Origin: an uncultured Bacteroidota bacterium
Lineage (GTDB): Bacteria > Bacteroidota > Bacteroidia > Chitinophagales > Chitinophagaceae
Assembly (NCBI GenBank): GCA_903878475.1
Contig: CAIRHQ010000181.1
Span: forward strand, 1-34,718
Length of the DNA: 34,718 nt
Direction of reading: 5' to 3'
Positions 1,112-3,562 of the stretch are shown piece after piece; position 1 is the stretch's first letter; each line of letters starts with the position of its first letter. The notes beneath the pieces are model-generated. The model had not been told where the DNA came from and did not search any database. It saw only the letters and a list, made by a program, of their open reading frames with translations. The translations under genes and the position numbers were made by a program.

Positions 1112-1546
1112 TTAGAATGGAAGGTCGTCAGCACCTTCGGCAGTTCCGGCAGGAGCCGAAATGGCCACAGGCCCTTTGCTGATACCGGCGTTGCTTACAT
1201 TACCTGCATTGGAACCAGAACCCTCAGGGCTATTGCCCCCAAGCAATTGTACCGTTTGAACCCGCATGCGCAATGTAGAAGACACTTGTCCTTCTTTATT
1301 GGTATAAGCATCTGCTTCCGGTGATCCTTCTGCATATACCGTTCTGCCTTTTGTGAGGTACTGGGCTACAGCTGTCCTGTCTGTCCAGTAAGCACATTCC
1401 ACCCAGGTGGTGCGCTCTTTTTGGTTGCCCTGTGCATCTTTGAAGCGCTCGGTATGCGCTACACTGAAATTGATCACATTTTTTCCATTCACTTCTTTCA
1501 CGATACAATCTTTTCCAAGATTGCCGATGATCTGTAACTTAATCAT
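1112..1546 (-). CDS. ssb: Single-stranded DNA-binding protein
   Basis: 144 aa; OB-fold N-terminus MIKLQIIGNLGKDC...TTWVECAYWTDRTAVAQYLTKGRTVYAEG and acidic C-terminal tail DDLPF. Confidence 0.95.
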   Translation of the reverse strand: MIKLQIIGNLGKDCIVKEVNGKNVINFSVAHTERFKDAQGNQKERTTWVECAYWTDRTAVAQYLTKGRTVYAEGSPEADAYTNKEGQVSSTLRMRVQTVQLLGGNSPEGSGSNAGNVSNAGISKGPVAISAPAGTAEGADDLPF

Positions 1547-1618: not shown

Positions 1619-2089
1619 CTAATCCCAAATGGCGGCCCTTGGGGCCTTTAGGGTGCGAAGATAATCCAGTAGCTGCCCGGCATGTACTGATTCATGATAG
1701 GCCATTATCAATAAAAAATCGCCCAGTTTCCGGTTCTGTTTTTTCTCCTTCCGGATAATGCGTACTTCCTCCAGTTCTTTCAAAGAAAAGCTGTTCACCA
1801 TCTTCAGGAATTTCTCGCGATAAGGCTGTGCATTTTTTAGTTCCTCATCAATAGAACCATAAGGATTACCGGTTAGGGGGCATTGATAGCTTCCCATTTC
1901 TCCCCGATGCAATACCAGATGATGATAGATATTTTCTGACTCCAATACATGCCGTATCATCTGGATACAATTCATCGCAGCCGGATCGGGTTTCCAGAAC
2001 AAATGTTCTTCAGAAATATTCATCCAGATCTTTATACTTCTGCGGCGAACCTCTTCAAAATTCAATATCAATAACTCTTTTGTGTTCAT
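1619..2089 (-). CDS. DinB family protein
   Basis: 156 aa; four-helix DinB pattern with spaced His residues (IRHVLESENIYHHLVLHRGE, AYHESVHAGQLLDYLR). Confidence 0.8.
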   Translation of the reverse strand: MNTKELLILNFEEVRRRSIKIWMNISEEHLFWKPDPAAMNCIQMIRHVLESENIYHHLVLHRGEMGSYQCPLTGNPYGSIDEELKNAQPYREKFLKMVNSFSLKELEEVRIIRKEKKQNRKLGDFLLIMAYHESVHAGQLLDYLRTLKAPRAAIWD

Positions 2090-2171: not shown

Positions 2172-2924
2172 TTAATTCATTTTCTTCTTTAATGTACTCA
2201 CCTGACTTTGCAGATTATTGACCATACTGGCCAGTGAGTTCACATCCCAGCGTTGCTGCTGGCTGATCTTACTGATCACCATCTGCGCCTGCCAGAGTTC
2301 CATTACATCCTCGGCATTGATCTGATAAGGCTGAAACTGAGGATTATCGCTGATCAGCGTCAATTTATTTTTACTGCGGTTATTCTTTTCCACGCGCTTG
2401 TATACGATCCCTTCATTTCGGCTGACCACTATATACGCCTGATTATTTTTAATATCGGAGGTGTTCTCAATTTTCTCCCCCACGATGATGCTGCCACTGG
2501 GTGTAGGCAGCATGCTATCCCCAATGATCTCGAATGCCCGGTAATTTCCACCGGCGAGCATGGGAAGCGTGAACGTATTGAGCTCATCGATGAACTCACT
2601 GTCGGCATAGCTGGCCAGATAACCCGCCGCTGCTTTCACCGGCACAAAATGAATCAGGTTCCTTTCGGCACTCATCATTTTTTGTTGCCTTCGCTTGGCC
2701 ATATAATTATCTGAGCTGATGCTCAGATCCTTGAGCAGGAGTTCATCCAGACTCAATTTAAATATATCGGCAATGATCTCCAGCACTTCCAGCCTGGGGT
2801 CTGCACGTTCTTCTTCATAGGCTCCGATCAAAGAACGTTTGATACCGAGTTTATTGGCAAATTCTTCCTGCGTCCACCCGCGGAGCTTGCGCAGATATTT
2901 GAGGTTTTGTCCGGCTACTGACAT
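2172..2924 (-). CDS. XRE-family transcriptional regulator with C-terminal S24/LexA-like peptidase domain
   Basis: N-terminal HTH (NLKYLRKLRGWTQEEFANKLGIKRSLIGAYEEERADP); C-terminal S24 signatures GDSM (Ser) and YKRV (Lys). Confidence 0.9.
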   Translation of the reverse strand: MSVAGQNLKYLRKLRGWTQEEFANKLGIKRSLIGAYEEERADPRLEVLEIIADIFKLSLDELLLKDLSISSDNYMAKRRQQKMMSAERNLIHFVPVKAAAGYLASYADSEFIDELNTFTLPMLAGGNYRAFEIIGDSMLPTPSGSIIVGEKIENTSDIKNNQAYIVVSRNEGIVYKRVEKNNRSKNKLTLISDNPQFQPYQINAEDVMELWQAQMVISKISQQQRWDVNSLASMVNNLQSQVSTLKKKMN

Positions 2925-2931
2925 GGTACAA

Positions 2932-2977
2932 CTAATTTGATTAGCACAAATATACTAATTTTTTTAGTTTCTCCAAA
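2932..2977 (-). promoter_or_regulatory. Promoter of the XRE/S24 gene with two candidate operators CTAA-N5-TTAG
   Basis: Minus strand: TTTG (2974-2977), 19-nt spacer, TATATTTG (2947-2954). Palindromes CTAATTTGATTAG (2932-2944) and CTAATTTTTTTAG (2955-2967) flank the -7 box. Confidence 0.7.
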
Positions 2978-3097: not shown

Positions 3098-3562
3098 ATG
3101 AACTATACTTTAGTCATTCACTCCATATTACGCTGGGCCGTTTTATTATTCGGGCTCTGGACCGTAATCAATGCCCTGTCGGGTGTTTTTTCAAAAACAA
3201 AATATACCAATAGCGACAATAGAACCAACCTGTTCTTTATGATCAGTTGTGATATTCAATTGTTACTCGGACTGGTACTTTATTTTAACGGCAGTTGGTT
3301 CAACCTGCTTAAAGCCAATGCTAAAGAAGTGATGAAAGATGGCGCAAACCGGTTCTTTGCTGTAGAACATATCAGCATGATGATCATCGCCTGGCTGCTG
3401 GTGCACCTGGGAAGAAGTATGGTTAAGCGCGCAGATACCGATGCCCAGAAACATAAAAAAAGCCTGATCTGGTTCGGTATTGCCCTGGTCCTGATCCTGG
3501 CTATGATCCCCTGGCCTTTCCGCCAGATAGGCATTTCAAGAGCACTGTTTCCTCAATTTTAA
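3098..3562 (+). CDS. Conserved membrane protein (cytochrome-b-like / DUF), 154 aa
   Basis: Four hydrophobic segments; His residues in HSILRWAVLLFG, EHISMMIIAWLLVHLGR. Confidence 0.6.
   Translation: MNYTLVIHSILRWAVLLFGLWTVINALSGVFSKTKYTNSDNRTNLFFMISCDIQLLLGLVLYFNGSWFNLLKANAKEVMKDGANRFFAVEHISMMIIAWLLVHLGRSMVKRADTDAQKHKKSLIWFGIALVLILAMIPWPFRQIGISRALFPQF

What the first reader, a model, noticed from the sequence alone, without database searches (positions are those of the whole stretch)
2932..2977. Paired identical-geometry operators bracket a textbook promoter of the XRE/S24 regulator
Minus strand carries TTTG, 19 nt, TATATTTG, a near-ideal Bacteroidota promoter. CTAATTTTTTTAG (2955-2967) fills the -33/-7 spacer and CTAATTTGATTAG (2932-2944) covers the start region. 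Both fit CTAA-N5-TTAG and are spaced 23 bp centre to centre. With a retained GDSM Ser and YKRV Lys in the S24 domain, this suggests an autorepressed, possibly self-cleaving repressor, with dinB-family and ssb genes downstream on the same strand.
Basis: partly seen in the sequence, partly recalled or inferred. Interest (0 to 1): 0.6.

Follow-up and report, generated by a model that had tools for sequence, protein, structure and literature searches.

The report
Bacteroidota SOS repressor's paired operators
The two short mirror-image DNA sites sit on the promoter of a gene for an already described DNA-damage (SOS) repressor of this bacterial phylum, so the finding is real but mostly a rediscovery; the apparently unreported part is that the two sites keep the same 23-bp spacing at two different SOS promoters.

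Summary
CTAATTTGATTAG (2932-2944) and CTAATTTTTTTAG (2955-2967) lie 23 bp apart over a minus-strand TTTG-N19-TATATTTG promoter, 7 nt before the ATG of a 250-aa HTH_3/Peptidase_S24 gene. This is the 'non-canonical LexA' of Bacteroidetes (Sanchez-Osuna et al. 2021, PMC8565304), whose published motif is exactly CTAA-N5-TTAG and whose reported range includes Chitinophagaceae.

Tests here support membership. Of 130 family orthologues, 124 have an exact operator. The Ala-Gly cleavage bond and the Ser/Lys dyad are invariant in all 130. Operators also sit before recA (30/30 genomes), and in some relatives before a Y-family polymerase, SRAP and umuD-like genes. The host genome has no classical LexA and only this one S24 protein.

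Its 'dinB-family' clue is wrong: that gene is DinB_2, not polymerase IV.

What I did not find in that paper's main text is the paired geometry. A second operator sits 22-24 bp away in 100/130 lexA promoters, where the -7 box fills the gap, and in 22/30 recA promoters, where it mostly does not. It is at 23 bp in 5/5 promoters of a distant family. I infer lambda-CI-like cooperative dimer pairs; this is untested.

The parts
2172..2924 (-). lexA-like gene (non-canonical Bacteroidetes LexA), 250 aa: HTH_3 8-62, cleavage bond Ala100-Gly101, Peptidase_S24 97-207 with Ser137 and Lys176, C-terminal helix 228-248
   Evidence: ORF, Pfam, residue conservation in 130 orthologues, AlphaFold2 model and Foldseek matches to lambda/186 CI and LexA
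2932..2944 (.). proximal operator CTAATTTGATTAG, downstream of the -7 box, over the expected transcription start, 7 nt before the ATG
   Evidence: conserved in family
2955..2967 (.). distal operator CTAATTTTTTTAG, in the -33/-7 spacer, abutting the -7 box
   Evidence: conserved in family
2947..2954 (-). -7 box TATATTTG (TAnnTTTG type), filling the gap between the two operators
   Evidence: the linker begins TA in 98 of 101 orthologous pairs
2974..2977 (-). -33 element TTTG, 19 nt from the -7 box
   Evidence: TTTG at 18-19 nt from the linker is the commonest arrangement in orthologues
1112..1546 (-). ssb, possible downstream operon member (co-transcription not shown)
   Evidence: PF00436; downstream of the orthologue in the 3 congeners and in two g46 loci
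1619..2089 (-). DinB_2-superfamily gene between lexA and ssb; not DNA polymerase IV and not a conserved partner
   Evidence: PF12867; linked in one other congener only

Best explanation
The gene encodes the chromosomal SOS master repressor of this Chitinophagaceae (Ferruginibacter-like) bacterium, the known non-canonical, CI-derived LexA of Bacteroidetes. Two dimers bind the two CTAA-N5-TTAG operators. One operator lies in the -33/-7 spacer and one over the start site, with the -7 box between them, so RNA polymerase is excluded and the gene represses itself. After DNA damage, RecA filaments trigger cleavage at Ala100-Gly101 by Ser137/Lys176, which releases this promoter and others such as recA. 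The second operator's fixed 22-24 bp distance most likely reflects contact between neighbouring dimers, as in lambda CI. Shown here: sequence anatomy, conservation, regulon and spacing. Shown by others for relatives: binding and DNA-damage induction. Inferred: cleavage, and cooperativity between dimers. The confidence below is for the identity and the autorepression; cooperativity alone is about 0.5.
For: Exact published motif and family (PMC8565304). Operator in 124/130 orthologues; pair at 22-24 bp in 100/130 against 0 in controls; -7 TA directly after the distal operator in 98/101 pairs. A98, A100, G101, S137, K176 invariant in 130/130. recA has an exact operator in 30/30 genomes, the host included. 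Operator pairs in relatives also precede a Y-family polymerase, SRAP, UmuD-like, 2'-5' RNA ligase and radical-SAM genes. No LexA_DNA_bind domain and a single S24 protein in the genome. Best PDB folds are 186/lambda CI and LexA. Spacing: at recA the -23 offset stands out (z 6.3) although the linker is mostly not a -7 box (3 of 30 begin TA). Five of five f3-family homologues at 42-46% identity keep 23 bp. Family-wide, 161 of 187 exact pairs with gaps of 0-30 fall in gaps 9-11 (my sum of the tables, arithmetic); the reversed pattern gives 1.
Against: No binding, cleavage or induction data exist for this protein. The family sample shares ancestry, so counts are not independent events. The distal recA operator is usually one mismatch off, and about a quarter of lexA promoters lack a second site by my criterion. 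The host's own Y-family polymerase gene has no operator close upstream, so the regulon here is small. The AlphaFold2 model is weak around the cleavage segment (pLDDT below 50 at 86-107).
Confidence: 0.93

Rival explanations
1. The 23-bp spacing is only a by-product of promoter geometry: two independent dimers happen to flank an 8-bp -7 box, with no contact between them.
For: At lexA the linker is almost always the -7 box, TA in 98/101 pairs, so the box could set the distance.
Against: At recA the same 23 bp is kept (19 of 22 pairs) although the linker is mostly not a -7 box; 3/30 linkers begin TA and 5/30 contain TTTG, and the likely promoter lies downstream. In f3-family homologues the linker also lacks TAnnTTTG on the coding strand.
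Confidence: 0.3
2. It is the CI-type repressor of a prophage or mobile element rather than the host's SOS regulator.
For: HTH_3 plus S24 is CI-like; best folds are 186 and lambda CI. NCBIfam gives only sub-threshold hits to phage and antitoxin repressors.
Against: Orthologues in 182/200 genomes of the family, mostly single copy; nearest flanking genes look chromosomal (SSB by Pfam; SurE- and LpxB-like by inspection); the same operator precedes recA in 30/30.
Confidence: 0.03
3. It is an autoregulated XRE/S24 stress regulator with no SOS role and no self-cleavage.
For: No experiment on this protein; the host's Y-family polymerase lacks an operator.
Against: Operator conserved before recA in 30/30 and before other SOS genes in relatives; cleavage residues invariant; published induction data for relatives (PMC8565304).
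Confidence: 0.04

Closest known systems
Non-canonical LexA of Bacteroidetes, CTAA-N5-TTAG group (Sanchez-Osuna et al. 2021, NAR 49:11050, PMC8565304; EMSA-tested example Pontibacter actiniarum WP_025606010.1)
   Same: HTH_3 plus S24 architecture, Ala-Gly and Ser/Lys, motif, self-regulation, recA and other SOS targets, presence in Chitinophagaceae, extra C-terminal helix
   Different: The main text reports two or more sites in some promoters but I found no fixed inter-operator spacing and no relation to the -7 box in it. I could not fetch the P. actiniarum sequence for direct comparison.
Phage lambda / 186 CI repressors
   Same: Helical HTH plus S24 C-terminal domain; adjacent operators at similar centre-to-centre distance (lambda OR1-OR2 24 bp, OR2-OR3 23 bp, from own knowledge)
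   Different: Here a chromosomal master regulator; rigid 13-bp dyads; predicted long C-terminal helix
Canonical LexA (PF01726 winged HTH)
   Same: S24 cleavage domain, SOS regulon, autorepression
   Different: DNA-binding domain is HTH_3; no PF01726 match in the genome

Membership tests
Non-canonical Bacteroidetes LexA, CTAA-N5-TTAG group | N-terminal HTH_3 (PF01381) plus C-terminal Peptidase_S24 (PF00717) | tested here: met
   Both above Pfam cut-off
Non-canonical Bacteroidetes LexA, CTAA-N5-TTAG group | Ala-Gly cleavage bond and Ser/Lys dyad | tested here: met
   A100-G101, S137, K176 present and invariant in 130/130
Non-canonical Bacteroidetes LexA, CTAA-N5-TTAG group | CTAA-N5-TTAG in its own promoter | tested here: met
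   Two exact copies; 124/130 orthologues
Non-canonical Bacteroidetes LexA, CTAA-N5-TTAG group | Same motif before canonical SOS genes | tested here: met
   recA 30/30 including the host, GIY-YIG exonuclease in the host; Y-family polymerase, SRAP, UmuD-like in relatives; host polymerase gene lacks it
Non-canonical Bacteroidetes LexA, CTAA-N5-TTAG group | Specific binding, RecA-dependent cleavage, damage induction | not testable with these tools
   Wet experiment needed for this protein
Non-canonical Bacteroidetes LexA, CTAA-N5-TTAG group | Direct sequence similarity to the EMSA-tested P. actiniarum regulator | not tested
   Sequence not retrievable; no Pontibacter among the 80 named loci returned
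Canonical LexA | LexA_DNA_bind winged HTH (PF01726) | tested here: not met
   Protein has HTH_3; no match in the genome
Lambda-CI-like cooperative operator pair | Fixed spacing of adjacent operators independent of promoter layout | tested here: met
   lexA and recA both at 22-24 bp with different promoter positions
Lambda-CI-like cooperative operator pair | Measured cooperative binding | not testable with these tools
   Needs binding curves

The most novel reading that the evidence does not exclude
The Bacteroidota LexA uses a fixed two-operator module (23 bp centre to centre, about 2.2 turns) at lexA and recA, bound cooperatively by two dimers as in lambda CI, possibly through its extra C-terminal helix. 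The SOS switch of this phylum would then work as a cooperative, phage-like switch rather than by independent LexA dimers.
Probability: 0.5. Interest if true: 0.45.

Novelty: new member of a known kind. Interest (0 to 1): 0.27.

Why it matters
It places this organism's SOS system within a described family and extends the operator and cleavage-site evidence to over a hundred genomes. The conserved spacing adds a simple testable prediction about how the phage-derived LexA of Bacteroidota binds: in cooperative pairs, with the recA distal site usually too degenerate to be found by exact motif searches. That would affect how regulons are predicted in this phylum.

Tried and rejected
mreB as a target: the host has an operator 152 bp upstream of mreB, but 0 of 29 relatives do, so it is chance or species-specific. 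Conserved regulation of the GIY-YIG exonuclease: exact site in only 4 of 30, host included. dinB_2/ssb as a conserved SOS operon: rejected except ssb in the genus and g46. Host Y-family polymerase under the operator: no site within the upstream 280 bp at up to one mismatch. Direct comparison with the P. actiniarum regulator: sequence not obtainable. Literature searches for operator spacing or cooperativity in this family found nothing; supplementary files of PMC8565304 could not be read.

Full report
What is there. On the minus strand, 2977 to 2922 reads TTTG-N19-TATATTTG, then CTAATCAAATTAG, seven bases, and ATG. The two palindromes at 2932-2944 and 2955-2967 are the only CTAA-N5-TTAG sites in the window. 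The gene (2172-2924, minus) encodes 250 aa with HTH_3 and Peptidase_S24.

Known identity. Sanchez-Osuna et al. 2021 (PMC8565304) described a family of CI-like HTH_3/S24 repressors that run the SOS response in Bacteroidetes. One of their two motifs is exactly CTAA-N5-TTAG, found upstream of the regulator itself, umuDC, recA, dinB, splB, SRAP, ssb and others. EMSA and mutagenesis proved binding, and large regulons are reported for Chitinophagaceae. The closest named relatives of the window protein are Ferruginibacter and other Chitinophagaceae records, the best at 85-93% identity.

Tests of membership. In 200 genomes of the same family, 182 carry a homologue. I extracted 130 of the best-scoring orthologues with flanks. 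124 have an exact operator within 110 bp of the start, against a Markov-control mean of 0.52. Of 80 named-collection relatives, 78 have one. Ala100, Gly101, Ser137 and Lys176 are invariant in all 130. The host genome has only 11 exact sites; apart from the two here, they include recA and a GIY-YIG/RNase_T exonuclease of the type named in the paper. The genome has no LexA_DNA_bind domain and only this S24 protein. An AlphaFold2 model (mean pLDDT 72) matches 186 and lambda CI and LexA and shows a C-terminal helix like the additional one mentioned in the paper.

Spacing. Among the 130 lexA promoters, 100 have two operators at 22-24 bp with at most one mismatch in total, and none in controls; 67 are exact pairs. 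Measured from the proximal operator, a partner with at most one mismatch occurs at 22-24 bp in 92 of 124, and in 0-2 of 124 in the three-base windows tested that do not overlap 22-24. At lexA the linker is the -7 box, so promoter geometry alone could explain the spacing. At recA, 30/30 genomes (host included) have an exact operator and 22/30 a partner at 22-24 bp, 19 of them at 23. The offset -23 stands out at z = 6.3. The linker there is mostly not a -7 box, and the sequence after the proximal operator often carries TTG and then TAnnTTTG, so the promoter probably lies downstream of the pair. In a different family of the same class (f3; 42-46% identity to the window protein) all five promoters keep a pair at exactly 23 bp. 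Across 200 genomes, exact pairs with gaps of 9-11 bp number 161 of 187 found with gaps of 0-30; the reversed pattern gives 1 and 23 (my sums; arithmetic). In two genomes (G124, G125) many copies lie in a repeated element; leaving out 17 of them the figures are 144 of 170.

Mechanism. Shown: anatomy, conservation, regulon overlap, spacing. Shown by others in relatives: binding and damage induction. Inferred: cleavage of this protein at Ala100-Gly101 and cooperative dimer pairs. Lambda CI operators sit 23-24 bp apart and bind cooperatively (own knowledge); this is a resemblance, not a test.

The 'dinB-family' gene is DinB_2 (PF12867), not polymerase IV, and is linked in only one other congener. 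ssb is linked in the three congeners and in two g46 loci. The promoter, dyads, Ser and Lys are correct.

Limits. Genomes are related, so counts are not independent. The 130 orthologues are the top of the hit list, so weak paralogues are under-represented. I could not read the supplementary tables of the key paper, which may already list site pairs.

Noticed in passing
L299, L300, L302-L309 (genomes G124, G125, G074), e.g. L306:1-151: A repeated element, mostly at contig ends, carries tandem CTAA-N5-TTAG operators with a -7-like TA..TTG between them, directly before an ORF whose first 37 aa resemble an IS1595-type transposase (Zn_ribbon_IS1595, E 0.013, below cut-off). It may be an insertion sequence under SOS control.
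   Followed up: partly
own genome G000: Exact CTAA-N5-TTAG is depleted: 11 sites in 2.85 Mb against 58 for the reversed pattern; congeners show the same tendency.
   Followed up: partly
L002:1501-1513: Operator followed by a TATTTG box 152 bp upstream of mreB in the host genome, not conserved in 29 relatives.
   Followed up: yes
L409 and L412 (family f4): More distant homologues carry different paired palindromes (GATAC..GTATC in L409) about 33 bp apart with TATATTTG between them, roughly one helical turn more than 23 bp; seen by eye only.
   Followed up: no
window 3098-3562: A divergent gene for a 154-aa membrane-like protein without a Pfam match neighbours lexA in the three congeners and in three more distant loci; unknown whether the operators affect it.
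   Followed up: partly
L078:2196-2244: In a congener (G129) three operators lie in a row between a UmuD-like S24 gene and a 2'-5' RNA ligase gene; a 2'-5' RNA ligase also follows an operator pair in L090, which suggests an SOS-regulated RNA ligase.
   Followed up: partly
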